Translations under genes and position numbers: made by a program
Source of the DNA: Azospirillaceae bacterium
GTDB lineage: Bacteria; Pseudomonadota; Alphaproteobacteria; Azospirillales; Azospirillaceae
Length of the DNA stretch: 64,000 nucleotides
Reading direction: 5' to 3'
Assembly: GCA_028283825.1 (NCBI GenBank)
Contig: JAPWJW010000003.1
Location: 2,542,501-2,606,500, forward strand
Shown here: piece after piece, positions 16,372-62,714 of the stretch
How positions within the stretch are numbered: position 1 is the stretch's first letter
Layout: each line of letters opens with the position of its first letter
Notes under the pieces: generated by a model
Seen by the model: the letters and a program-made list of their open reading frames with translations, nothing else
The model's database searches: none
Told to the model about the DNA's origin: nothing

Positions 16372-17136
16372 ATGACGTCTCCGTCCACCACCGTTGCCTC
16401 CACCGGACCCGCCGCCGCCAAGGGGCGCCGCCGTTTCCGTCCCACCTTCTGGGGCGGGCTGGTGGCGGGAACGGCCATCGTGTTCATGGTCGGCCTGGGC
16501 ACCTGGCAGGTGCAGCGGCTGTTCTGGAAACAGGGGATATTGCAGCATATCCAGGACCAGATGGCGGCCGCGCCCACCGACCTGCCGGCCACCATCGCTG
16601 ATCCGAAGGCTTGGGATTATCGGCGGGTGCGCGTCACCGGCCATTTCCTGAACGATCATGAACTGTACCTGGGCGCCCGCTCACTGAAGGGCGTGCCCGG
16701 CTACGACGTGGTCACGCCGCTGGTGCGGGCGGACGGTGGCGGGGTGGTCCTGGTGGATCGCGGCTGGGTTCCGACCCAGGGCAAGGATCCCACCTTGCGG
16801 CTGGACGGCCAACTGGCGGGGGAGGTGACGGTGGAGGGGGTGGCCCGCGTGCCGCCGCCGCGCGCCTGGATGCAGCCGGACAACCTGGTGAAGGATAATT
16901 TCTGGCTATGGTACGACCTGCCGGCCATGGCGGCCAAGGCCGGCACCGACCTGCCCGAACCCGTGGTGGTGGAGGCGGGAGCCACCCCCAACCCCGGCGG
17001 CTTCCCCGTCGGCGGCCAGACCCGCGTCACCGTACCCAACGACCACCTGCAATACGCGCTCACCTGGTACTGTCTGGCCGTCGCCCTGGCCGTCATCGCC
17101 TATTTGCGTTTCAGCCGGGTAGAGGCCGAGGCTTGA
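16372..17136 (+). CDS. surf1: SURF1 family oxidase assembly protein
   Basis: SURF1 (254 residues) assists insertion of heme a into subunit I. The two-helix topology is clear: an N-terminal helix (LVAGTAIVFMVGLGTWQVQRL, with the family signature LGTWQ.QRL) and a C-terminal helix in YALTWYCLAVALAVIAYL. The periplasmic domain has YRRVRVTGHFL, GVPGYDVVTPL and VLVDRGWVP, and the PNDHLQYALTWY motif precedes the last helix. It follows the DUF983 gene with a 6-bp gap and is the last gene of the oxidase cluster; two structured repeats come next. Confidence 0.95.
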   Translation: MTSPSTTVASTGPAAAKGRRRFRPTFWGGLVAGTAIVFMVGLGTWQVQRLFWKQGILQHIQDQMAAAPTDLPATIADPKAWDYRRVRVTGHFLNDHELYLGARSLKGVPGYDVVTPLVRADGGGVVLVDRGWVPTQGKDPTLRLDGQLAGEVTVEGVARVPPPRAWMQPDNLVKDNFWLWYDLPAMAAKAGTDLPEPVVVEAGATPNPGGFPVGGQTRVTVPNDHLQYALTWYCLAVALAVIAYLRFSRVEAEA

Positions 17137-17158
17137 TGCCTAATTCTTAACTCAAATA

Positions 17159-17258
17159 GCCCGCGACCGCGGGCGCCGGAGATTTCCGGGGAGCCGAAGG
17201 CGGACTGGAAATCGAGGATGAGGCAAGCGGGCGGATGCCCGCGCCCGCCGTCTGAGGG
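17159..17258 (+). repeat. Structured ~100-nt repeat, copy 1
   Basis: This is one of at least seven copies in the window. Hairpin I is GCCCGC-GACC-GCGGGC at 17159-17174. Hairpin II has arms GATTTCC and GGAAATC enclosing GGGGAGC. Hairpin III is GCGGGC-GGAT-GCCCGC. The element ends with CTGAGG. It lies directly 3' of surf1 and in tandem with copy 2. Confidence 0.85.
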
Positions 17259-17274
17259 AATAAGAATCAAACAA

Positions 17275-17370
17275 GCCCGCGACCGCGGGCGCCGGACCTT
17301 TTCGGGGAGCTTCAGCGGACTGAAAAGGGAGGATAGCCAAAGGCCCGGATGGGCCTGCCGGCGCTTGAGG
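17275..17370 (+). repeat. Structured ~100-nt repeat, copy 2
   Basis: Same order as copy 1: hairpin I GCCCGC-GACC-GCGGGC, hairpin II with changed arms CTTTTC/GAAAAG, and hairpin III AGGCCC-GGAT-GGGCCT. The terminal TTGAGG falls 8 bp before the stop of the convergent coiled-coil gene. Confidence 0.85.
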
Positions 17371-17378
17371 AACAAATA

Positions 17379-17960
17379 TCAAGAGGCAGCCAGGCGGGCG
17401 GCCTTGGCGGCGCGGGTTTCCAGCGTGGTGCTTGGGGCCGGCGCCTGGCCGGCGGCCATCGGCGCCGCCCGTTGCGCCAGGCTGGTGACGCGGAAGCCGC
17501 TGGCCAGGGGGAAGCGCCGTTCCAGGCGGGCGCGGGCGTTGGCGTCGTCGGACCCCCACAGCAGGAAACGGCGGCGCTGCCACGGCACGCTGGCCGGCTG
17601 GGCGTTCTCCGCCACGGTGCCGCCCACCTCCACCACCGTCAGCCAGGCGGTGTCGGCGGGGTTGCGCCGCTCCTCCAGCACGAAGATACGGTTTTCCGGC
17701 CGGGCGGCGCGCTTGGTCTCCTGCTCCAGCCGGGCGCAATCGTCCTGCAACGTTTCCATGGTCAGCAACAGGTGGCGGCGCTGCTGCTTCAGGCCATAGG
17801 TGACGCGGGCCAGGCGGCGCACGCGCTCCGCCTGTTCCCGCCGGCGGGTCAGGGCCTGGCGGCGGCGCGTCTTGGCCTCGGCGATGCGGGTCCAGGCGCG
17901 CTCACTGGCGACGCCCGCGGCCATCACCACGGCCAGCAGGCTCAGCATCAGGGCCATCAT
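17379..17960 (-). CDS. Membrane-anchored coiled-coil protein of unknown function
   Basis: The protein (193 residues from ATG 17960) has an N-terminal hydrophobic helix (MLSLLAVVMAAGVASERAW), then a long Arg/Glu/Gln-rich coiled coil (about residues 22-95), then a small globular part ending in RRFLLWGSDDANARARLER. That C-terminal stretch aligns without gaps to the end of the upstream neighbour (IEIWADNLADARRDVQR), sharing W, AxAR, R, P and G positions. The two genes therefore look like diverged duplicates. ATGA overlap with the upstream stop suggests coupled translation. I do not recognise a named family. A continuous frame reading through from 18551 exists but its middle is out-of-frame sequence. 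Confidence 0.78.
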   Translation of the reverse strand: MMALMLSLLAVVMAAGVASERAWTRIAEAKTRRRQALTRRREQAERVRRLARVTYGLKQQRRHLLLTMETLQDDCARLEQETKRAARPENRIFVLEERRNPADTAWLTVVEVGGTVAENAQPASVPWQRRRFLLWGSDDANARARLERRFPLASGFRVTSLAQRAAPMAAGQAPAPSTTLETRAAKAARLAAS

Positions 17961-18551
17961 GCCACGTTCTCCTGCCCGGATTCGGGGGCCTTGGCCACGC
18001 CACTGTTGCTCAGCTGTATGCTCAGCAGCACGTAACCCAGGGGTGGGGGGTAATAACGCTGAACGTCCCGCCGGGCGTCGGCCAGGTTGTCTGCCCAGAT
18101 CTCGATCACCTGTGGGCCCGCCCAGTCGGGATCCAGGCCCGGTGCCGCCTTGCCCTCGGCCAGGGCGGTCTGCACCTGGCGGTTGCACCATCCAGGCGAC
18201 AAACCGGTTCTGGCCGGAATCCTCCCGCCCCACCACCCGGATGGCGGCCTGGGCGGCGCGGCGCGCGTCCTCCAGTTCCTTGTCCAGGGCGTAGCGGCGG
18301 CGGCGCAACTCGCCCAGGGCGTTTTGCAGGACGGTCAATTCCGACCGCAATTCGCTTTCCCGGTTCTCGAACCGGTTTTCCAATTGGGCGCCCAGGGGCA
18401 GTCGGCTTTCGGCATGGCGCAGCTCCGGCTGTCGGTCGATGGCCGACTCGCCCAACTTGCCCAGCGCCAGGACGATCACGCCCGCCACCACCGCCAGGGT
18501 GCCGGCCAGCATGATCGCGTGCAGAAGCCCCATGTTCCGCCACAACCCCAT
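17957..18551 (-). CDS. Membrane-anchored coiled-coil protein, frameshifted near 18187
   Basis: Starting at ATG 18551 the protein has an N-terminal membrane helix (MLAGTLAVVAGVIVLALG) and a coiled coil (ESELRSELTVLQNALGELRR). The sensible frame switches after FVAWM to NRQVQTALAEGKAAPGLDP and continues to VLLSIQLSNSGVAKAP and a stop at 17957. Removing one base around 18183-18192 joins the two parts into 197 residues. Past that point the original frame becomes Gly/Arg/Pro-rich with no helix or strand pattern. The C-terminal motif matches the downstream gene. Function is unknown; by design it could be a periplasm-facing scaffold. A sequence error is more likely than decay. Confidence 0.72.
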
Positions 18552-22780: not shown

Positions 22781-22856
22781 CCTCAGACGCCGGCAGGTCC
22801 ATCCGGGCCTTTGGCTCATCCTCCCTTTCCGGTCCGCTGACGCTTCCCGGAAAGCT
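22781..22856 (-). repeat. Structured repeat, copy 3 (5' truncated)
   Basis: Read on the minus strand, hairpin II (CTTTCCGG/CCGGAAAG) and hairpin III (AGGCCC-GGAT-GGACCT, one mismatch) are present and the copy ends in CTGAGG. Hairpin I is missing. It lies between the autotransporter stop and the terminator hairpin. Confidence 0.75.
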
Positions 22857-22870
22857 GCTTTCAGCCCCCC

Positions 22871-25800
22871 TTACCAGCTGAGACGGAAGCCGGCGGTGAA
22901 GACGTGGTCGGTCTCGCCCCGGCGCAGGGTGCCGTCGTAGTTGGCGTAGAGGTTCAGGTTGCGCCCCTCCTGCAAGGTCAGGCCACCACCGATGGCCAGG
23001 CCGTCGCGGCCCGTCTCGGGGCCGGTCACCGCAAAGCCGCTGCCCAGCAAGGACGCCTCGCTGGTCAGGGCGCGGTCGCGGAAGTCGTGCACCCACGCCG
23101 CCCGCACCGTCGGCGTGATCACCGTGCCGCCTTCCGTCGTCCAGTTGGCCGACGCCCGGCCGCCGACACTGCTTTGCAGCGCCGTGGTGTCCAGTTCATC
23201 CACCGCCAGGTTCAAGGCACCCGCCCCCGTCTCGGTGAAGCCGTCGCGCGACACCCGCAGCCATTGCAGGCCCGCCTGCGGCTCCAGGGTCAGGTTCGAC
23301 ACCCGCACCCGGTAGCCCGCCGACACACCGGCGTTGACCTCACCACCCGAGGCGCTGCCCACCGCCGTGCGCGTCAGGCCGCCGAAGCTCATCGTCCGCG
23401 ACGTGTCGTACTGGTCGTAGGTGTAGCCGGCGTTGCCGGTGACGAACAGCCCGTCACCCAAATCGACGTTGCCATAGGCCGACAGGCCGTAGCTGGCGGT
23501 CTCGTTCGACCCGCCGGAGGTGCTTTGCAGCAGGCTGCCGGCCAGGCCCACCGTCACGCCCGGCGCCATGGCCCGGTCGCCGCCGAACAGGCCGCCGCCG
23601 GTGTTGCTGTGGCCGCCGCCGGCATTGCCGTCGCTGTCCACCCGGTTGAACGCCCCCAGGCCCTGCGCCCAGAAGTGCCAGCCGTCCTCCGGCAGTGCCG
23701 ACCCGGCCGAGGCACCACGCTCCTGCTGCACCGGCGCCCCGCCATCGCCGTTGCTGACGGCGGTGTAGAGGGTGCGGCCCACCAGTTCGGCCTGCATCGT
23801 GCCCTGCATGGACCCCGACATGCCGTCGCGCACCGCCGCCAGGCGCTGGCCCAGCACCTGGGTCGCCTGCAAGCCGCGCGTCAGGCTGTAGGCGACGATG
23901 TTGGCCTGGCTTGAGCCGCCGATCTGCGACAGCGCGTCCAGCGACGCCCCCATGGTGGGCGCGCTGTACAGCGCCTTCAGCACCGTGCCCAAATCGCTGT
24001 TGCCGGACCCGTTGAGGCCCGACACCACCCGGCCCACCGCCTGCTGGTTGGCGCTGGCGCCGGTCAGCTTGGCAAAGGTCGGCGTCACGTACAGGTCGAC
24101 GGCGTTGCTGGTGTACACGGCACTGAACTGCGTGCCCGCCAACAGGCCGGCCGCCGGCTGGGTGATGCTGGCGAAGCTGCCCGACACGCCACCGGCCGCC
24201 TGGACGACGGTGAAGTCGGTGCCCAGGCTGGGGGTGTAGGTGTTGGAGGCGTTGCCGGTGATGCCGCGCAGCTTGGCTTGCAGCGTGGCCCCCGAACCGA
24301 TGACGTAGCTGCCGCCCGTCACCAGGACGCGGGAGTAGTTGCCCGCACCAGCGCCCGTGCCCGTGCCGTCGATGTCAATCGACAGGGTGGAGCCGGCCCC
24401 CTGGGTCAGCGTCTTGGTGAAGGTCAGGGTGCCGGGCGAGTTGCCGGGCGCCAGGATGCCCGACACCGTGGCCGAACCCGTCACCAGGCCGGTGCCGCGC
24501 AGGGTGCCGCCCGAACCCACGGTGATGTCACCGCCGGCGACACCGTTGATGGCGGTCAGGCCGCCGTTGACGGCCAGGGGTGCGGTGATGGTGCCGCCCA
24601 GGTTCAGGGTGCCACCGATGACCTGTATCGCTTGGCTACCGGCGATGGTGGAGCCGGTCCCCTGGACAATGGTGCCGCCGCTGATGGTGCCCAGGGTGGC
24701 GGACCCGCCGGTCAGGGTCACCGTGCCGCCGCTGATGGTGCCCACCGTGGGCGTGCCGCCGGTGACGCTCAGTTCACCACCCGTCATCTGGTCCAGCACG
24801 CCGGCGCCGCTGGAGATGGTGGCGGTGCCGCCGGCCGACAGGCTGCTGCCACCGATGCGGACGATCAGGTCGGTCATGCCGTCCACCACCGCGGTGGTGA
24901 CGTTAGTGGTGTAGCCCGTCGCCAGGACGGTCAGACCGCTGTAGCTGGACGTGGCATCGCCCGCGGATACCAGGGTATAGCTGCTGTTACTGACCAGGCT
25001 GTAATCCGATCCGCCGGTCAGCAGGACGGTGCTGTTGCTGATGCTGGCGGTACCGCTGACCACCAGGCCACTGCTGGTGCCGGCGGATGCCAGCACCGCC
25101 AGCGTGCCGCTGGACTGGCTGTAGTTGCCGGTGATGGAGACGGCCCCGTTCACCACCAGGTCACCACCGCTGTTGACCAGGGTATGACCGGCCACGTTGA
25201 CGGTGTCGTTCAGCACCACATTGCCGGAGATGCTGACGTTGCTGGCGGTGTTGACCAGGTTGCCCTGGCTGCCGCCGACACCGGTCAGGGTGCCGAACAC
25301 CGTGCCCGTGCCGCCGGTGACGGCCAGGTCGTGGGCCGAGGTATTGATGATGTCGCCGGCGATGACACCGGTGTTGACGATGGCGGGCAACGCACCGGTG
25401 TCGGTGTTGCGGATGGCCGCCACGGCGCCGGTGATGGTGCCGCTGTTGGTCAGCGCGCCGATGGTGCCGGCGTTGATGATGCCGGTTTGCCCGCCCTGGA
25501 TGAGGCCGCTGTTCACCAGGGTGCCGATCACGGCGTTGGACGCGCCGTTGTCGATGCCGGCCCCGGCCACGCCCAGGATGGTGCCGGCGTTGATCAGCGT
25601 GCCGATGGTGCCACCGATGGGGCCGGTGGTGCCGACCACCGTGGTGATGGAGTAGGCGTATCCACTCCAGTAAAACGCCTGCGAGGTGACGGTCGTGTTA
25701 TCGACGGATGCGGCCCCGTTAAGGATGCCATCCTGGCCGCCGGAGATAACGCCGCTGTTGTTCAGCGTGCCGACGGTGCCGCCGCCAGTCGTCGAGGTCT

Positions 25801-31960: not shown

Positions 31961-31990
31961 TAAACCGGTCCCGCTTACCCGCTTATACGC

Positions 31991-32022
31991 GCGGCATTTG
32001 AACGTGACCGCTCAAATGCCGC
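31991..32022. other. 11-bp perfect stem-loop
   Basis: The arms GCGGCATTTGA (31991-32001) and TCAAATGCCGC (32012-32022) enclose a 10-nt loop. It directly adjoins repeat copy 4 and may be part of, or a remnant of, the same structured region. Confidence 0.6.
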
Positions 32023-32023
32023 C

Positions 32024-32140
32024 CCTCAAGCGCCGGGCGCGCCCATCCGGTCGCTTGGCTTCCTCAGTTTCTGGTCCACTTTGTTCCCCAGAAACTTCCG
32101 GCGGACGCGGTCGCGTCCTACAGCGGCACTCGTGCCGCTG
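32024..32140 (-). repeat. Structured repeat, copy 4, with extra 5' hairpin
   Basis: On the minus strand an extra hairpin CAGCGGCA/TGCCGCTG (32121-32140) comes first. Next are hairpin I GGACGC-GACC-GCGTCC (32103-32118), hairpin II with arms AGTTTCTGG/CCAGAAACT, hairpin III GCGACC-GGAT-GGGCGC (one mismatch) and TTGAGG. It sits 3 bp from the SDR stop codon. Confidence 0.82.
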
Positions 32141-32143
32141 GTA

Positions 32144-32905
32144 TTACTTGGCGTTCATGCGCACCGCACCGTCCAGGCGGATGGTCTCGCCGTTCAGCAT
32201 GACGTTGCGGCAGATGGTCAGGGCCAGGTCGGCGTATTCCTCGGGCTTGCCCAGACGCTTGGGGAAGGGGATGGAGGCCGCCAGGCTGTCCTGCACCTCC
32301 TGCGTGAAGCCGGCCACCATGGGCGTCCAGAAGATGCCGGGGGCGATGGTCATGACGCGGATGCCGAAACGGGCCAGTTCGCGCGCGATGGGCAGGGCCA
32401 TGGCGTGGATGGCGCCCTTGGAGGCGCTATAGGCCGCCTGGCCCACCTGGCCGTCGAAGGCCGCGACCGAGGCGGTGTTGATGATCACCCCGCGCTCGCC
32501 ATCCTCCAGCGCGTCCAGGGGGCTCATGTCCGCCGCCGCCAGGCGCAGGATGTTGAAGCTGCCGATCAGGTTGATCTCGATGACCTTGCGGAAGGCGTCC
32601 AGGTCCAGCGGGCCCTCGCGGCCCAGCACGCGGCCGGCGGTGGCGACACCGGCGCAGTTCACGGCGATGCGGGCGGGGCCGTGCGCTTCGCGCGCCTTGG
32701 CGATGGCGGCGGCGGCGCTGTCGGCGCTGGTGACGTCGCAGCTAAGCGCCAAACCGCCGATTTCCGCTGCCACGGCTTCGGCCGCGGCCACATTCACGTC
32801 CAGCAGGGCGACCTTGGCACCCTCTGCCGCCAGGCGGCGGGCGGTGGCGGCACCCAGGCCGGAACCGCCGCCGGTGATGATGGCGGCTACACCTTGAACC
32901 TGCAT
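32144..32905 (-). CDS. SDR family 3-hydroxyacyl-CoA dehydrogenase, HSD10-like
   Basis: This 253-residue short-chain dehydrogenase has the NAD site IITGGGSGLGAATARRLAAEGAKV, the acidic DVN after strand 2 (NAD rather than NADP preference), NCAGV, and the catalytic Ser/Tyr/Lys in NTASVAAFDGQVGQAAYSASK. The stretch GREGPLDLDAFRKVIEINLIGSFNILRLAA and RVMTIAPGIFWTPM fit the HSD17B10/2-methyl-3-hydroxybutyryl-CoA dehydrogenase group. It probably oxidises short branched 3-hydroxyacyl-CoA, but the exact substrate is inferred. ATG 32905 follows GGGAGAG; a longer in-frame extension to 33154 is rejected. The 296 bp upstream (32906-33201) holds no gene. Confidence 0.9.
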   Translation of the reverse strand: MQVQGVAAIITGGGSGLGAATARRLAAEGAKVALLDVNVAAAEAVAAEIGGLALSCDVTSADSAAAAIAKAREAHGPARIAVNCAGVATAGRVLGREGPLDLDAFRKVIEINLIGSFNILRLAAADMSPLDALEDGERGVIINTASVAAFDGQVGQAAYSASKGAIHAMALPIARELARFGIRVMTIAPGIFWTPMVAGFTQEVQDSLAASIPFPKRLGKPEEYADLALTICRNVMLNGETIRLDGAVRMNAK

Positions 32906-38433: not shown

Positions 38434-38532
38434 CCTCAAGCGGCGGGCGCGGGCATCCGCCCGCTGGCTTCATCCTCGATTTCCAGTCCGCCTTCGGCTC
38501 CCCGTAAATCTCCGGCGCCCGCGGTCGCGGGC
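38434..38532 (-). repeat. Structured repeat, copy 5
   Basis: On the minus strand: hairpin I GCCCGC-GACC-GCGGGC (38517-38532), hairpin II GATTT/AAATC around GGGGAGCCGAAGGCGGACT, hairpin III GCGGGC-GGAT-GCCCGC and TTGAGG. It lies 3' of the YhfC-like gene and upstream of the CYTH-CHAD gene. Confidence 0.83.
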
Positions 38533-38577
38533 TTGTCGCTTCGCTCCGTCTGTCGGCGCCCGGCGCATGAGGGACGG

Positions 38578-39316: not shown

Positions 39317-40513
39317 ATGACCTTCAAGACCCTAGACGACATCGCAGCATCCAGCCGCACCGTGCTGGTCCGCGCCGACCTCAACGTCCCGGTGCAGGAT
39401 GGGCAGGTGTCCGACACCACCCGCCTGGACCGCCTGGTGCCCACGCTGAAGGAACTGGCGGCCAAGGGCGCCAAGGTGGTGGTGCTGTCGCACTTCGGCC
39501 GTCCCAAGAACGGCCCGGACGAGAAGAACTCCCTGCGCCAGGTGGTGCCGGCCCTGTCCAAGGCCCTGGGCGCACCGGTGGCCTTCGCCAGCGATTGCAT
39601 CGGCAAGCCGGCGCAGGACGCCATCCGCGTCCTGGAAAAGGGTCAGGTGCTGGTGCTGGAAAACCTGCGCTTCCACGCCGGTGAGGAAAAGAACGACCCC
39701 GCCTTCGCCGCCGAACTGGCCAAGCTGGGCGACCTCTACGTCAACGACGCCTTCTCTGCCGCCCACCGTGCCCACGCCTCGACCGAGGCGCTGGCCCGCC
39801 TGCTGCCCGCCGCCGCCGGCCGCCTGATGCAGGCCGAACTGGTGGCCCTGGCCAAGGCGCTGGGCCAGCCGCAGCGCCCGGTGGCCGCCGTGGTCGGTGG
39901 TGCGAAGATCTCCACCAAGCTGGACCTGCTGCTGAACCTGGTGGGCAAGGTCGACATCCTGGCGCTGGGCGGCGGCATGGCCAACACCTTCCTGTTCGCC
40001 CAGGGCGTGGACGTCGGCGCCTCGCTGGCGGAAAAGGACATGGCCGACCAGGCCCGCGCCATCATGGCCCGCGCCGAAGCCGGCGGCTGCCGGATCCTGC
40101 TGCCCAAGGACGGGGCGGTGGCCAAGCAGTTCAAGGCCCACGCCCCGTCGCGCATCGCCGCCCCCGGCGACATCGCGGCGGATGAGATGATCCTGGATGC
40201 CGGCCCCGCCACCGTCGCCTACTATGGCGAGGCCCTGGCCGGCGCCAAGACCGTGGTGTGGAACGGCCCAATGGGCGCCTTCGAGATCGAGCCGTTCGAC
40301 GCCGCCACCAACGCGGTGGCCAGGATCGTGGCCGACCTGACCAAGGCCGGCACGGTGCTGTCGGTCGCCGGCGGCGGCGACACGGTGGCGGCATTGGAGC
40401 ATGCCGGCGTGGCCGACTCGTTCAGCTACATCTCCACCGCCGGCGGTGCCTTCCTGGAATGGCTGGAAGGCAAGGAACTGCCCGGCGTGAAGGCGCTAGA
40501 AGTGGCGGTCTGA
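39317..40513 (+). CDS. pgk: Phosphoglycerate kinase
   Basis: Pgk makes ATP from 1,3-bisphosphoglycerate in glycolysis and works in reverse in gluconeogenesis. The 398-residue protein shows [14 protein letters not shown], the substrate region [23 protein letters not shown], the hinge region [16 protein letters not shown], and the C-terminal nucleotide loop [38 protein letters not shown] is the standard end. No gap or tpi gene is adjacent. A 12-bp stem-loop and repeat copy 6 follow the stop. Confidence 0.98.
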
Positions 40514-40528
40514 TTACATGAGGACCAG

Positions 40529-40656
40529 CAGCGGCATGGGGCAACCCGTGCCGCTGTAGGGCCCGACCGGGCCCGCCGGAACTTTTCGGGGAGCGTCAGC
40601 GGACTGAAAAGTGAGGATAGCCCAAGCCGCCGGATGGCGGCGCCCGGCGCTTGAGG
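40529..40656 (+). repeat. Structured repeat, copy 6, with extra 5' hairpin
   Basis: An extra hairpin CAGCGGCATGGG/CCCGTGCCGCTG (40529-40556) is followed by TAGG, as in copy 4. Hairpin I is then GGGCCC-GACC-GGGCCC (40559-40574), hairpin II CTTTTC/GAAAAG, hairpin III GCCGCC-GGAT-GGCGGC, then TTGAGG. It lies between the convergent ends of pgk and rnhA. Confidence 0.84.
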
Positions 40657-40666
40657 GCGAACGAAA

Positions 40667-41128
40667 CTACTTCCGCGCCTCTGCGAGGCCCTCGCGGGCC
40701 AGCTGGTCGGCGCGTTCGTTCTCGGGGTGGCCGTTGTGGCCGCGCACCCAGTGGAACACCACCTCGTGCCGGTCGGCCTGGTCGGACAGACGCTGCCACA
40801 GATCCACGTTCTTCACCGGCTTCTTGTCGGCGGTCAGCCAGCCCCGGGCGCGCCAGCCGTGGATCCATTTGGTGATGCCGTCGCGCAGGTACTGGCTGTC
40901 GGTGTGCAGATCCACCCTGACCGGCCGCTTCAGGTTTTCCAGCGCGCGGATGGCGGCCATCAATTCCATGCGGTTGTTGGTGGTGTCGGGCTCCCCGCCC
41001 TTCATTTCCTTTTCCGTGCCGTTCCAGCGCAGGATGGCGCCCCAGCCGCCGGGGCCGGGGTTGCCGCTGCAAGCACCGTCGGTGAAGATCTCGACGCGCG
41101 AACTGGCGGGCTTGGCGACGTCGCTCAC
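40667..41128 (-). CDS. rnhA: Ribonuclease HI
   Basis: RNase HI cuts RNA in RNA-DNA hybrids. The 153-residue protein shows the four acidic catalytic positions in [20 protein letters not shown] (Asp17), [28 protein letters not shown] and [11 protein letters not shown], and the active-site His in [13 protein letters not shown]-like context ([12 protein letters not shown]). GTG 41128 overlaps the thrB stop as GTGA, showing coupled translation. The thrB-rnhA pair downstream of ispH is common in alphaproteobacteria. Confidence 0.97.
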
Positions 41129-46548: not shown

Positions 46549-46608
46549 GGCCAGCTTTACTTTCCGGGGTCCCCTGGATTAGGGTGCAAGTGCGAAGCTG
46601 ATGACATC

Positions 46609-46828
46609 TCGCGGGAGAGACCGGCCCCGATTGGTGGCCGGCGCCGAAGGAGCAACCGCCCCCGGAAACTCTCAGGCAAAAGGACCGCGAGAAAGAAGCG
46701 CATCTGGAAAGCGGCACGGCCTTGATTCCGGCGCCATCCTGTTTGGGATGGGGCTGGGTGTTTCAGGCCAATGCCCACCGACGGAGTAAGCGGGTTTCCC
46801 CCGTGAATCTCTCAGGGTCCGGGACAGA
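46609..46828 (+). ncRNA. Tandem glycine riboswitch upstream of gcvT
   Basis: Aptamer 1 runs from 46609 to 46690 with a closing stem TCGCGG/CCGCGA and the conserved GGGAGAGACC, GCCGAAGGAGCAA and ACTCTCAGGCAAAAGGAC. Aptamer 2 (about 46703-46828) has ACCGACGGAGTAAG and AATCTCTCAGGGTCCGGGACAG, with an enlarged peripheral stem between. Both match the glycine riboswitch class, which turns on gcv genes when glycine binds. The expression platform should lie in 46829-46897, where an ATGGA/TCCAT hairpin precedes the gcvT start region. Confidence 0.96.
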
Positions 46829-46897: not shown

Positions 46898-48013
46898 ATG
46901 TCGTCCTCATCCGATTCGCCCATTCTCACCACGCCCCTGAACGCCCTGCACCGTAAGCTGGGGGCTAAAATGGTGCCCTTCGCCGGCTATGACATGCCGG
47001 TGCAGTATCCGCTGGGCGTGCTGAAGGAACATCTGCACACCCGCGAGAAGGCCGGCCTGTTCGACGTGTCGCACATGGGCCAGGTCATCCTGCGCGGCGA
47101 CGGCGTGGTGGATGCCCTGGAAAAGCTGGTGCCCGGTGAGTTGAGGGCCCTGAAGCAGGGCCGCATCCGCTATAGCTTCTTCACCAACGACCAGGGCGGC
47201 ATCCTGGACGATTTGATGATCGCCAACCGGGGCGACCATCTGTTCCTGGTGGTGAACGCCGCCTGCAAGGTGCCGGACATTGCCCACCTGACGGCGGGCC
47301 TGCCGGGCGTCGAGATCGAATATCTGGGCGATGACCGGGGCCTGCTGGCCCTGCAGGGCCCCGTGGCCGCCACCGTGCTGGCCCGCTTCATCCCCGATGT
47401 CGCCACCATGCCCTTCATGTCCATGGTCAGCGCTGACCTGAAGGGCATCCCCGTCACCATCGCCCGCTCCGGCTACACCGGTGAGGACGGGTATGAGATC
47501 GGCATCAATGCCGACCGTACCGAGGACGTGGCCCGCCTGCTGCTGGCGGAGCCCGAGGTGGCCGCCATCGGCCTGGGTGCCCGCGATAGCCTGCGGCTGG
47601 AGGCCGGCCTCTGCCTCTACGGCCACGACATCGACACCACCACCACCCCGGTGGAGGCCGGCCTGACCTGGGCCATCTCCAAGCGCCGGCGGGAGGAGGG
47701 GGGCTACCCCGGCGACGCCATCGTGCGCCGCCAGCTGGCCGAGGGTGCGACCCGCTACCGCGTCGGCATCCAGCCGGAAGGCCGTGCGCCCGCCCGTGAG
47801 CATACCGAAATCCAGGACGCCGCCGGCCAGACGGTGGGCGAGGTCACCTCCGGCGGCTTCGGGCCCAGCGCCAACGCCCCCGTCGCCATGGGATACGTCA
47901 CCGCCGCCAACGCCGCCGTGGGCACGTCCCTGTCGCTGGTCGTGCGCGGCAAGCCGCTGCCGGCCAAGGTCGCCAGCCTGCCTTTCGTGCCGCAGCGCTA
48001 CTACCGCGGCTGA
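46898..48013 (+). CDS. gcvT: Glycine cleavage system T protein (aminomethyltransferase)
   Basis: GcvT transfers the methylene group from aminomethyl-lipoyl-GcvH to tetrahydrofolate and releases ammonia. The 371-residue protein contains PLNALHRKLGAKMVPFAGYDMPVQY, EKAGLFDVSHMGQV, IARSGYTGEDGYEIGI, and LGARDSLRLEAGLCLYGHDID; all are family signatures. It is the first gene of the riboswitch-controlled gcv operon. Confidence 0.97.
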   Translation: MSSSSDSPILTTPLNALHRKLGAKMVPFAGYDMPVQYPLGVLKEHLHTREKAGLFDVSHMGQVILRGDGVVDALEKLVPGELRALKQGRIRYSFFTNDQGGILDDLMIANRGDHLFLVVNAACKVPDIAHLTAGLPGVEIEYLGDDRGLLALQGPVAATVLARFIPDVATMPFMSMVSADLKGIPVTIARSGYTGEDGYEIGINADRTEDVARLLLAEPEVAAIGLGARDSLRLEAGLCLYGHDIDTTTTPVEAGLTWAISKRRREEGGYPGDAIVRRQLAEGATRYRVGIQPEGRAPAREHTEIQDAAGQTVGEVTSGGFGPSANAPVAMGYVTAANAAVGTSLSLVVRGKPLPAKVASLPFVPQRYYRG

Positions 48014-60785: not shown

Positions 60786-62714
60786 TCAAAACCCAAACAT
60801 GTGATCCAGCGCGAATGCCCCGTGGGCGCCATCGCGGATCAGGCCGTGATAGCCGAATAGGCGGCAGGTGGTGTCGCGGATCAGGACATAGGCGTCGCGG
60901 CCGGCCTCTTTCACCTCGGCACTGGTGAAGGTCTGGCCGACGCGGAAGTGGAAGCTGCCGGAACAGGCGATGTTGACCGTGCGGCGGGCGATTTCGCGCC
61001 CGTCCTTGGTGGTCAGCACCAGGGCGGTGTCTGAGCGCCGCTTCCACGGCGTGCTGGCCGGATAGATGAGGTGGCACAGGGTGTCGACGTCGGTCGCCAT
61101 GCCGGTGCGCAGGAACAGCCGCGTGGACAGGCCGGGCGCGCGGCCGGAATAGGACTGCGGCTCGTTCCGGTAGGTCAGCACGGTGTTGAACATGTGGGCG
61201 CCGAAGCTGGTCTCGGCGGCGTGGCCGCTGGTCGCGTCCTCATACCGGAACAGGGCGTGCAGCCAGCCGTCGGCCTCGGTACCGGACGCGAAGTCGTAGA
61301 TCAGTTCCAGATGGCCGTAGCCGGAGGGCAGGGCCTTGGCCCCCAGCAGATCCGCCGCCTCGAACGCCATCTCGTGGTTGCGCGGCAGGTTGCCCAGGTC
61401 GCGGCGCGCCACCTCCGTCCCATCGGCGTCATAGACGATGGCGGTCAGCGGCAGGTGCGCCTGCGTCGTCGCCATGGGCGTGGGCAGGGCGATGGTGCGG
61501 AAGCGGTTGGCCGGGAAGATGGGCGCCGGCAGGATGAAACCCTTGCCCATCAGGTTGGTCAGGGCCGCCAGCTTGGGATCGGGCTTCAGATCGCCCCGTT
61601 CCACGTTGGGGTGGGCGATGCGGCGGCGCACGCCACCGGTGGCCGTGCGGCGGATGACCTCGTACCGCGGGCGGACGAAATGCTTGCCGGCGCGGATCTC
61701 CACCTGCTGCGGCCAGCGGGCCTCGGGCAGCAGGCTGGCCACGTCCAGCGGGAAGGTGGCGTAGGGGGCGACCTCCCGGTTCATCGGCACCGCCACGTCA
61801 TGTCCCATCAGGTTCAGGGCGACGGCGCCCACCGGGATGGGGCAGGGGTGGCTGTTCTGCACCCACAGGATGACCTGTTCGTCATCGCGGGGCGCCGGCA
61901 GGCCAGCATAGAAATCGGACGGCCAGGCGTTGGCGTCGTGGGTGCAGGACAGGGTGTCGGCCCCGTCGCCATAGGTGTCCAGCGCGTACTTCACCACGTC
62001 GTGGCCGGCGGCGTTCACCACGTGGATGAACAGCTGGCCGGTGAACTCGGCCAAGTCGAAACGCTTGCGCACCTGGGCGCTGTCGATGACCACGGTGCCG
62101 TCGGCACCGGGCAGGTCCTGGGTCCAGCGCGCCAGCACCTGGCCGGCGCCGTCGAACAGGCAGAGCCACAGATAGGGCTCGTCCGCGCCATAGCTGGACC
62201 AGTAGTTGGCCGTCACCACCCGGGTATGGTGGCCGTCCGCGTCGCGGAAAAAGGCGTAGTTGGTGGCGAAGTTCAGCGGCGCCAGATAGGTGCGCGGATC
62301 GGTCAGCAGGTCCGGCGGCAGCTTCAGCGGGTCCAGCGAGAACACGGGCACGCCGGCTGGGATCAGGTGGCGGATGTGCTCCACCAGCCGGTCGGCATCG
62401 AAGGCCGCCACGAACACGGCGTCCACGCTGGCGTCGGCCAGTTCCGTCACCGGCTGGGCGGGGCGGCCCAGCAGGGGCTGGCCGATCTTGTCCACGTTCT
62501 GGACATAGATGCCGGCCACGGTCACATCGGTCAGGTGATGGATCTCGTCGAACGGCTCCAGCATGTTCAGCGGATCGTAGATGGCGACCCGGCCGGCGGC
62601 GCGCAGATCGGCCAGCAGCATCCGCGCCGGCTCCGCCGCCAGCGGATGGCCGATGGCCTTGAAATAGCTGCTGCCGCCGGTGACGCTGCTGAAGGTCTCG
62701 ATCTTAAGGGGCAT
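60786..62714 (-). CDS. Large conserved protein of unknown function
   Basis: From ATG 62714 (MPLKIETFSSVTGG) the protein has 642 residues and no signal peptide. The first ~130 residues look Rossmann-like (ARMLLADLRAAGRVAIYDPLN, ASVDAVFVAAFDADRL), as in sugar-nucleotide or PglD-type domains. The rest appears beta-rich (YLWLCLFDGAGQVLARW, LTAIVYDADGTEVARRDLG, VLTTKDGREIARRTVNI), suggesting repeated beta-sandwich modules. I do not recognise a named family. It lies downstream of a 2OG-Fe(II) oxygenase and an ELM1-type gene on the same strand, which hints at cell-surface glycan or polysaccharide work, but this is inference. Confidence 0.8.
   Translation of the reverse strand: MPLKIETFSSVTGGSSYFKAIGHPLAAEPARMLLADLRAAGRVAIYDPLNMLEPFDEIHHLTDVTVAGIYVQNVDKIGQPLLGRPAQPVTELADASVDAVFVAAFDADRLVEHIRHLIPAGVPVFSLDPLKLPPDLLTDPRTYLAPLNFATNYAFFRDADGHHTRVVTANYWSSYGADEPYLWLCLFDGAGQVLARWTQDLPGADGTVVIDSAQVRKRFDLAEFTGQLFIHVVNAAGHDVVKYALDTYGDGADTLSCTHDANAWPSDFYAGLPAPRDDEQVILWVQNSHPCPIPVGAVALNLMGHDVAVPMNREVAPYATFPLDVASLLPEARWPQQVEIRAGKHFVRPRYEVIRRTATGGVRRRIAHPNVERGDLKPDPKLAALTNLMGKGFILPAPIFPANRFRTIALPTPMATTQAHLPLTAIVYDADGTEVARRDLGNLPRNHEMAFEAADLLGAKALPSGYGHLELIYDFASGTEADGWLHALFRYEDATSGHAAETSFGAHMFNTVLTYRNEPQSYSGRAPGLSTRLFLRTGMATDVDTLCHLIYPASTPWKRRSDTALVLTTKDGREIARRTVNIACSGSFHFRVGQTFTSAEVKEAGRDAYVLIRDTTCRLFGYHGLIRDGAHGAFALDHMFGF

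What the first reader, a model, noticed from the sequence alone, without database searches (positions are those of the whole stretch)
17159..17370. Family of ~100-nt intergenic repeats with covarying hairpins and fixed loops
At least seven copies occur in the window: 17159, 17275, 22781(-), 32024(-), 38434(-), 40529 and 60675. Hairpin I always has the loop GACC, but its arms change together: GCCCGC/GCGGGC, GGCCGC/GCGGCC, GGGCCC/GGGCCC and GGACGC/GCGTCC. Hairpin III always has the loop GGAT with arms GCGGGC, AGGCCC, GCCGCC or GCCGGC and their complements. Hairpin II changes as GATTTCC/GGAAATC, CTTTTC/GAAAAG, GCTTTCC/GGAAAGC and AGTTTCTGG/CCAGAAACT, around a conserved GGGGAGC core. Fixed loops with compensatory arms are what selection on RNA or cruciform structure leaves. 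Most copies sit just 3' of genes, often between convergent ends. I do not know a named family with these loops; a REP-like or MITE-like origin is possible.
Basis: seen in the sequence. Interest (0 to 1): 0.85.

Follow-up and report, generated by a model that had tools for sequence, protein, structure and literature searches.

The report
Stop-codon-hugging mobile hairpin repeat
The repeats are copies of a small mobile DNA element with three hairpins, found in many alphaproteobacteria, that tends to sit right at the ends of genes; its paired letters change together while its loops and linkers stay nearly fixed.

Summary
A covariance model finds all 7 window copies and 150 hits (149 copies) in 1.264 Mb of the genome, about 840 per genome by extrapolation. 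Pairing holds in 97.9% of cells, with 665 two-sided changes against 179.5 in shuffles. No Rfam family reaches its gathering score.

It is best explained as a MITE-like mobile element, not a riboregulator or REP/RAYT. Of 25 units in other genomes chosen by their ends alone, 14 have identical flanking 3-mers, all TNA, against 0 of 25 at six shifted positions; 10 of the 14 are from one genome, and the home genome gave 0 of 6. Of 4 annotated sites examined, 2 lie exactly at stop codons. One window unit (31986-32143) duplicates a stop codon. Orientation to genes is even (38 sense, 35 antisense). Copies come, go and are swapped between species.

The core is hit in 39 of 385 sampled genomes of the class. 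G·U exceeds A·C 57:18, so one single strand appears to be read, as RNA or ssDNA. The mobiliser is unknown; Y1 transposases are absent from 7 of 7 genus genomes.

The parts
17153..17257 (+). core copy 1, long form: P1 17159-17174 (loop GACC), P2, P3 17227-17242 (loop GGAT)
   Evidence: R1 119.9 bits; hairpins
17269..17370 (+). core copy 2, tandem with copy 1; the TGAGG end is 8 nt from the stop codon of the minus-strand gene predicted at 17379-18533
   Evidence: R1 103.2 bits; distance
22781..22886 (-). core copy 3, hairpin I missing; P2 and P3 remain
   Evidence: R1 58.1 bits; sequence; the two relatives aligned there (G064, G061) lack it
31986..32143 (-). complete 158-bp mobile unit: left end hairpin (TACCAGCGGC...), core 32024-32124, right end hairpin (...GCCGCGCGTA)
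32024..32124 (-). core copy 4 inside the complete unit
   Evidence: R1 109.4 bits
32144..32146 (-). target duplication, copy 1 (TAA) = stop codon of the predicted short-chain dehydrogenase gene 32144-32905(-)
   Evidence: coordinates; Pfam adh_short
31983..31985 (-). target duplication, copy 2 (TAA)
   Evidence: (TAA/TAA)
38434..38538 (-). core copy 5; upstream module CGGAGCGAAGCGACAAG at 38532-38548
   Evidence: R1 106.2 bits
40529..40556 (+). upstream end hairpin (CAGCGGCATGGGG...CCCGTGCCGCTG) of copy 6
   Evidence: sequence
40553..40656 (+). core copy 6, between PGK (39317-40513 +) and RNase H (40667-41128 -); TGAGG end 10 nt from the RNase H stop codon
   Evidence: R1 117.8 bits
60669..60771 (+). 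core copy 7, after a T-rich terminator-like hairpin (by eye); TGAGG end 14 nt from the stop codon at 60786(-)
   Evidence: R1 113.4 bits

Best explanation
A non-autonomous, MITE-like mobile element of Alphaproteobacteria. The full unit (about 146-160 bp) has two outer hairpins whose ends read TAYC...GDTA and, between them, a three-hairpin core. In the home family the loops (GACY, NCRT or an internal-loop variant, GGAY) and linkers (AAGSCAAG, GCCCGSCGNYTGAGG) are nearly fixed while the arms change in step; in distant genomes loop I is GACY in only part of the rows.

Shown: recently active units carry a 3-bp TNA duplication, in some cases exactly the stop codon of a gene, so the gene keeps its end; insertion is in either orientation; sites are gained, lost and swapped between related species; most copies in this genome look older, lack the right-hand hairpin and sit close to stop codons.

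Inferred: an unidentified transposase acts in trans on the ends, and the core is recognised as a folded single strand of one polarity (ssDNA or RNA) by the moving machinery or a host factor. Selection acts on the lineages that keep moving, with conversion between copies spreading hairpin variants.
For: Units of other genomes picked by end similarity alone: 14 of 25 have identical flanking 3-mers (TGA 8, TCA 3, TTA 2, TAA 1), 0 of 25 at each of six shifted positions; 10 of 14 G028 units and 4 of 11 others. Azospirillum ramasamyi (G028): 13 units with strict ends, all 156 bp, 11 with identical TNA flanks. Units start on the base after the annotated stop codon of a c-type cytochrome gene (flanks TAA/TAA) and an ACC deaminase gene (flanks TGA/CGA). 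Window unit with TAA/TAA, one copy being a stop codon. Empty sites; the clearest is G061 against the filled G059 site with TAA on both sides. TGAGG side facing a stop: 68 of 108 within 0-14 nt, 20.3 expected from random placement in the same gap, maximum 36 in 20,000 simulations. No orientation bias. Covariation in three sets: A5, aligned by sequence, and A2 and A6, aligned to the models. G·U 57 against A·C 18, while unpaired sites show the opposite bias (C>T 2/830, G>A 41/2452).
Against: No transposase or autonomous copy found. In the home genome duplications are poor: the strict scan gave 6 units with 0 identical 3-mers; a looser one gave 2 matches among 8 copies with a readable right end. 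Most of the 14 duplications come from one genome. Of 4 annotated G028 sites examined, 2 are not at an annotated stop, though my ORF test had counted both as stops; the plasmid gene tables are incomplete. Many home copies end in TGAGGGAAC with no right hairpin and lie 3-14 nt from TAG stops too, which a TNA rule does not explain. Solo end hairpins of 38-48 bp also carry TNA repeats, so the core is not needed for movement there. The P1 side shows no clear stop-codon excess (70 of 110 within 50 nt, 63.1 expected). The G·U excess is modest in convergent copies (19:9).
Confidence: 0.7

Rival explanations
1. A cis-acting structured RNA of mRNA 3' ends (terminator, stability or processing element) kept by selection at each gene.
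For: Strong covariation with nearly fixed loops, position just 3' of genes, G·U preferred to A·C.
Against: Orientation to the host gene is even (38 sense, 35 antisense) and the G·U excess holds in antisense copies too (14:5). By eye, several copies lie beyond a terminator-like hairpin. Only 4 of 24 home hits with a syntenic interval in G064 have a hit there, one of them in the opposite orientation. Conserved unpaired letters change in some resident copies.
Confidence: 0.12
2. A REP/BIME family moved by a RAYT (Y1) transposase.
For: Short palindromes, hundreds of copies, 3' of genes, mosaic modules, TAGG before hairpin I resembling the GTAG of REPs (passages); an IS110-family element targets it as IS621 targets REPs.
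Against: PF01797 gives no match in 7 of 7 genus genomes (controls ring in E. coli and Caulobacter among others). The three Y1 loci found in G028 and G049 read, to me, as ordinary IS200/IS605 loci and a separate RAYT-like locus with other repeats. 3-bp duplications are not a REP trait (recalled).
Confidence: 0.05
3. Arms are kept complementary only by mutation (quasi-palindrome template switching) or by gene conversion, with no selection on structure.
For: In 13 same-form ortholog pairs (not all independent), P1/P3 pair changes are 19 two-sided, 4 one-sided but still paired and 1 broken, more simultaneous than point mutation would give; long/short differences at 3 orthologous sites suggest replacement.
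Against: It does not explain invariant linkers beside free arms, the covarying outer pair of hairpin III, the G·U:A·C asymmetry, or the same fold in distant families.
Confidence: 0.1
4. A member or sister of the Caulobacter/Brucella CIR family (CcrM-associated intergenic repeats).
For: CIRs are ~110-bp intergenic repeats of alphaproteobacteria with two long hairpin arms joined by a linker and TA at the ends (PMC2229807).
Against: The named CIR hallmark GANTC is in 3 of 150 home cores, 0 of 22 and 0 of 22 in the other sets. No CIR sequence could be compared.
Confidence: 0.15

Closest known systems
CIR repeats (Caulobacter, Brucella; Chen & Shapiro 2003, seen only through passages and section 7 of PMC2229807)
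   Same: About 110 bp, intergenic, spread over alphaproteobacteria, hairpin arms joined by linkers, TA at termini
   Different: Three hairpins instead of two arms; almost no GANTC; target duplications seen here, marked '?' for CIR in that review's table
Bacterial MITEs (Correia/NEMIS, RUP, ERIC; PMC2229807 passages)
   Same: Under 200 bp, terminal inverted repeats, TA at ends, target duplication, mostly intergenic
   Different: 3-bp TNA duplication, in some cases a stop codon; internal core with nearly fixed loops and free arms; GC-rich (about 70%) where that review calls most such elements A+T-rich; no parent transposase known
REP/BIME with RAYT transposases (PMC2817692 passages)
   Same: Hundreds of palindromic copies 3' of genes, mosaic arrangement, target of an IS110-family element
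   Different: No Y1 transposase in the genus; arms vary and loops stay; 3-bp duplications
RIME and Bru-RS repeats of Rhizobium and Brucella (mentioned in passages of PMC2573895 and PMC2267715)
   Same: Structured intergenic repeats of alphaproteobacteria; Bru-RS is listed as 103-105 bp
   Different: Sequences not compared; model R2 finds no credible match on S. meliloti pSymB (best 24.3 bits, inside coding sequence by my reading)

Membership tests
MITE (non-autonomous DNA transposon) | Terminal inverted repeats | tested here: met
   25 units in other genomes with TAYC...GDTA ends matching at 7 or more of 12 positions; G028 ends TACCGCCGAGCG / CGCTCGATGATA
MITE (non-autonomous DNA transposon) | Target-site duplication | tested here: met
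   14 of 25 identical TNA 3-mers, shifted controls 0, 10 of the 14 from one genome; poor in the home genome (0 of 6; 2 of 8)
MITE (non-autonomous DNA transposon) | Insertion polymorphism / empty sites | tested here: met
   one site reads with a clean duplication, most others are too diverged to read one
MITE (non-autonomous DNA transposon) | Parent transposase with matching ends | tested here: inconclusive
   None seen: the 1.25-kb inserts are IS110-family passengers; the G028 end-pattern scan (106 places, first 100 listed) gave no gene-bearing unit except one split by an inserted IS; not an exhaustive search
REP/RAYT | RAYT (Y1) transposase in the genome | tested here: not met
   PF01797 0 of 7 genus genomes, controls positive
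REP/RAYT | GTAG/GTGG tetranucleotide 5' of the palindrome | tested here: inconclusive
   TA precedes hairpin I in most long copies (columns 5-6: T 87%, A 93%) but, where the upstream hairpin is present, it is that hairpin's end
CIR | GANTC in a hairpin loop | tested here: not met
   3 of 150, 0 of 22, 0 of 22 cores
CIR | Sequence similarity to CIR1-4 | not testable with these tools
   Original paper not held; I had no handle on a named Caulobacter genome
RIME | Match in S. meliloti | tested here: inconclusive
   R2 on pSymB only: best E 0.02 in apparent coding DNA; chromosome not searched
Any Rfam family | Match at gathering score | tested here: not met
   Window: only a glycine riboswitch elsewhere; cores in 17100-17420 and in 8 loci of other genera: none

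The most novel reading that the evidence does not exclude
A class-wide mobile element whose folded single strand is itself the recognised substrate, with stop codons as favoured landing sites: machinery not related to RAYTs reads nearly fixed loops on hairpins of free sequence (as RNA, SINE-like, or as ssDNA) and inserts the unit so that the duplicated triplet restores the stop codon.
Probability: 0.28. Interest if true: 0.85.

Novelty: new variant of a known kind. Interest (0 to 1): 0.62.

Why it matters
By extrapolation it makes up roughly 1% of this genome, and it is hit in 39 of 385 sampled genomes of its class (35 outside the home family), yet no Rfam family reaches its gathering score on it. 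It joins two things usually seen apart: RNA-grade covariation and mobile-element behaviour. A preference for gene ends explains how hundreds of insertions can be tolerated, and it gives a testable route to an unknown mobilising enzyme.

Tried and rejected
Looked for a REP-associated transposase: absent from the genus. The Y1 loci of G028 and G049 were read and judged ordinary IS200/IS605 loci or a separate RAYT-like locus.

Took the 1.25-kb insert inside two cores for the autonomous parent; its ORF is an IS110-family transposase, inserted at the same base of two different cores, so it is a passenger.

Rfam CC3552 hit on a short copy (25.8 bits, gathering 50) judged chance.

Tested whether the G·U excess is mutational: the unpaired sites lean the other way.

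First TSD survey script returned no units because its right-hairpin test was wrong; replaced by the end-similarity test with controls, which in turn misses units ending in other letters (the window unit and L367 among them).

Plasmid collection searches for the element of L367 and of the window found nothing; for the G028 unit they named Azospirillum ramasamyi.

Paper searches: in the listings I read I saw no paper on this repeat or on stop-codon insertion of a bacterial repeat. Several listings were cut short, and most subscription journals are not held.

Full report
Observation. In the tiled 1.264 Mb of the home genome (window plus C3:560001-960000 and C3:1560001-2360000) model R1 gives 150 hits at E<=0.01, of which two are halves of one copy split by a tile border. 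That is one per 8.4 kb, or about 840 in 7.16 Mb by extrapolation. The whole-genome model search scored only 150 candidates and all 150 matched, so its count is a floor. Rfam has no matching family at gathering score.

Structure. The long core is hairpin I (loop GACC/GACT), linker GCCGGA, hairpin II, linker GAGGA, an outer pair GCC/GGC or GGC/GCC, hairpin III (loop GGAT/GGAC), and the tail GCCCGSCGNYTGAGG. On 150 hits 97.9% of cells pair, two-sided changes are 665 against 179.5 (sd 9.4) shuffled, and the covariation score is 0.518 against 0.133; slid partners give at most 0.061 (the alignment was fitted to the structure and so leans to it). On the first, sequence-aligned 22 rows the score is 0.430 against 0.128. 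Among 123 long-form rows there are 34, 55 and 44 arm variants for hairpins I, II and III, while 16 unpaired columns show one letter only. Other genera carry a short form with a plain hairpin II whose loop is NCRT (A5, aligned by sequence: 95.3% paired, 0.482 against 0.104).

Which strand is read. Wobble pairs G·T outnumber A·C 57 to 18, leaving out one pair that is T·G in 30 copies. The excess is seen in sense (20:3), antisense (14:5) and convergent (19:9) copies. Mutational bias would not give this, since unpaired conserved sites show C>T in 2 of 830 and G>A in 41 of 2452. So one strand of the element, independent of host transcription, appears to fold: RNA from its own promoter, or ssDNA.

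Place. With my own dicodon gene finder (1137 genes in three segments), 146 hits are intergenic: 71 convergent, 38 tandem sense, 35 tandem antisense, 2 divergent, against gaps of at least 100 nt being 103 convergent, 374 tandem and 171 divergent. Where the TGAGG end faces a stop codon, 68 of 108 lie within 0-14 nt, 20.3 expected from random placement in the same gap, maximum 36 in 20,000 simulations. The other side, judged at 50 nt because of its end hairpin, shows 70 of 110 against 63.1 expected (5.8% of simulations as high).

Movement. In G028, later identified as Azospirillum ramasamyi by matching plasmid record lengths, 41 full or partial copies of one unit score above 140 bits, 16 of them at 95-100% identity over the aligned part (at most 40 candidates were scored, so a floor). 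Among the 30 fetched, 13 meet strict ends; all 13 are 156 bp and 11 have identical TNA flanks. In that of 13 follow an open frame of at least 60 codons, against 399 of 1454 control TNA triplets. But that test is weak: of four sites seen in annotation, two start on the base after a stop codon (flanks TAA/TAA and TGA/CGA) and two do not lie at an annotated stop, although the ORF test had counted these two. Choosing units by end similarity alone over the fetched loci of other genomes gives 25 units, 14 with identical 3-mers, all TNA, and 0 of 25 at six shifted positions: 10 of 14 units of G028 and 4 of 11 of other genomes (one each in G049, G065, G075 and, from another family, G307). In the home genome the same scan gives 6 units and none with equal 3-mers. 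A looser search gives two matches among 8 copies with a readable right end, one being the window unit 31986-32143, where TAA is the stop codon of a short-chain dehydrogenase gene. Four solo end hairpins of 38-48 bp with identical TNA repeats also occur in G028.

Turnover. The home genome is about 84-85% identical to five relatives over the window region. Of 24 home hits with a syntenic G064 interval, 4 have a hit there, one reversed. Between G064, G059 and G061 (93-94% identical) I found 18 same-orientation ortholog pairs, not all independent. In 5 (3 sites, one of which holds a second copy in G059) the core differs in form, long against short, and in the 13 others hairpins I and III show 19 two-sided changes, 4 one-sided but paired and 1 broken; hairpin III was not found in one of the 13 and placed wrongly in another. 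Empty sites are listed; the clearest reads GGTT-TAA-[unit]-TAA-GGAATTC against GGTTTAAGGAATTC; most others are too diverged to read a duplication. So copies come, go and are overwritten, and two-sided arm changes may partly be conversion.

Spread. R1 finds hits in 45 of 82 genomes of the family and R2 in 66 of 82. These calls score at most 48 and 57 candidates per genome. R2 hits 39 of 385 genomes sampled from the class (4 of the home family, 35 others, some with one weak hit), 30 of 277 genera. I fetched 16 short stretches around chosen hits in 16 of these genomes. In the resulting 20 distinct rows (two of them weak), aligned to the model, 95.8% of cells pair and the score is 0.483 against 0.112. 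There the linker AAGCCAAG and the tail are kept, but loop I is GACY in only 13 of 20 distinct rows and loop II is more varied than NCRT. The exact signature AAGCCAAG-N14..20-GCCCGGCGNNTGAGG is in 6 of 398 genomes of the phylum, all in this class, with the reversed pattern at zero in the rows shown. Named genomes with the long form, from one exact pattern, are Nitrospirillum species and Azospirillum sp. B4.

Comparison. It works like a MITE and meets the tested MITE features except a known parent enzyme. It is not a REP/RAYT system. The nearest named repeats are the CIRs, known to me here only through a review; their GANTC mark is nearly absent. RIME and Bru-RS could not be compared by sequence. 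An IS110-family element (Pfam PF01548, PF02371) has inserted at the same base (after AGCCAAG) of two different cores, as IS621 does in E. coli REPs (passages of PMC11208160).

Conclusion. A structured, mobile, stop-codon-associated repeat. The covariation and the conserved loops and linkers are shown; target duplications are shown in recently active genomes, chiefly one; the enzyme, and whether RNA or ssDNA is read, are inferred.

Noticed in passing
window 46602-46697 (+): Glycine riboswitch aptamer (RF00504, 77.9 bits), about 200 nt upstream of the gene predicted at 46898.
   Followed up: no
home C3 about 1945940-1947184 (L129) and 2333023-2334267 (L148): Two copies of an IS110-family element inserted at the identical position of two different cores; one copy has a broken reading frame. 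A likely bridge-RNA target site inside the repeat.
   Followed up: partly
L259 (G028 C1:1447000-1450500): An IS5-like element (by my reading of its ORF) sits inside the left end hairpin of a unit with TTA on both sides, and another IS-like stretch interrupts a neighbouring palindrome: the end hairpins look like IS hot spots.
   Followed up: no
L204 (G049 C169): A Y1 transposase gene (38.2 bits) flanked by TGTCACCGTAACC repeats, apparently a RAYT-like locus unrelated to this element.
   Followed up: no
L364 (G384 C5) and L139:9017-9337: Head-to-tail triplets of the core (identical or near identical), as also the pair at window 17153/17269: local tandem duplication of the unit.
   Followed up: no
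L371 (G405 C19): A unit follows a TGA that ends what looks (by recall of the protein's C-terminus) like the main sigma factor gene, with TGA again on the far side.
   Followed up: no
A. ramasamyi NZ_CP029833 and A. lipoferum NC_016587 (H7, H8): Both have a copy overlapping the annotated paaK gene: possibly an insertion shared by two species, or a shared hot spot.
   Followed up: no
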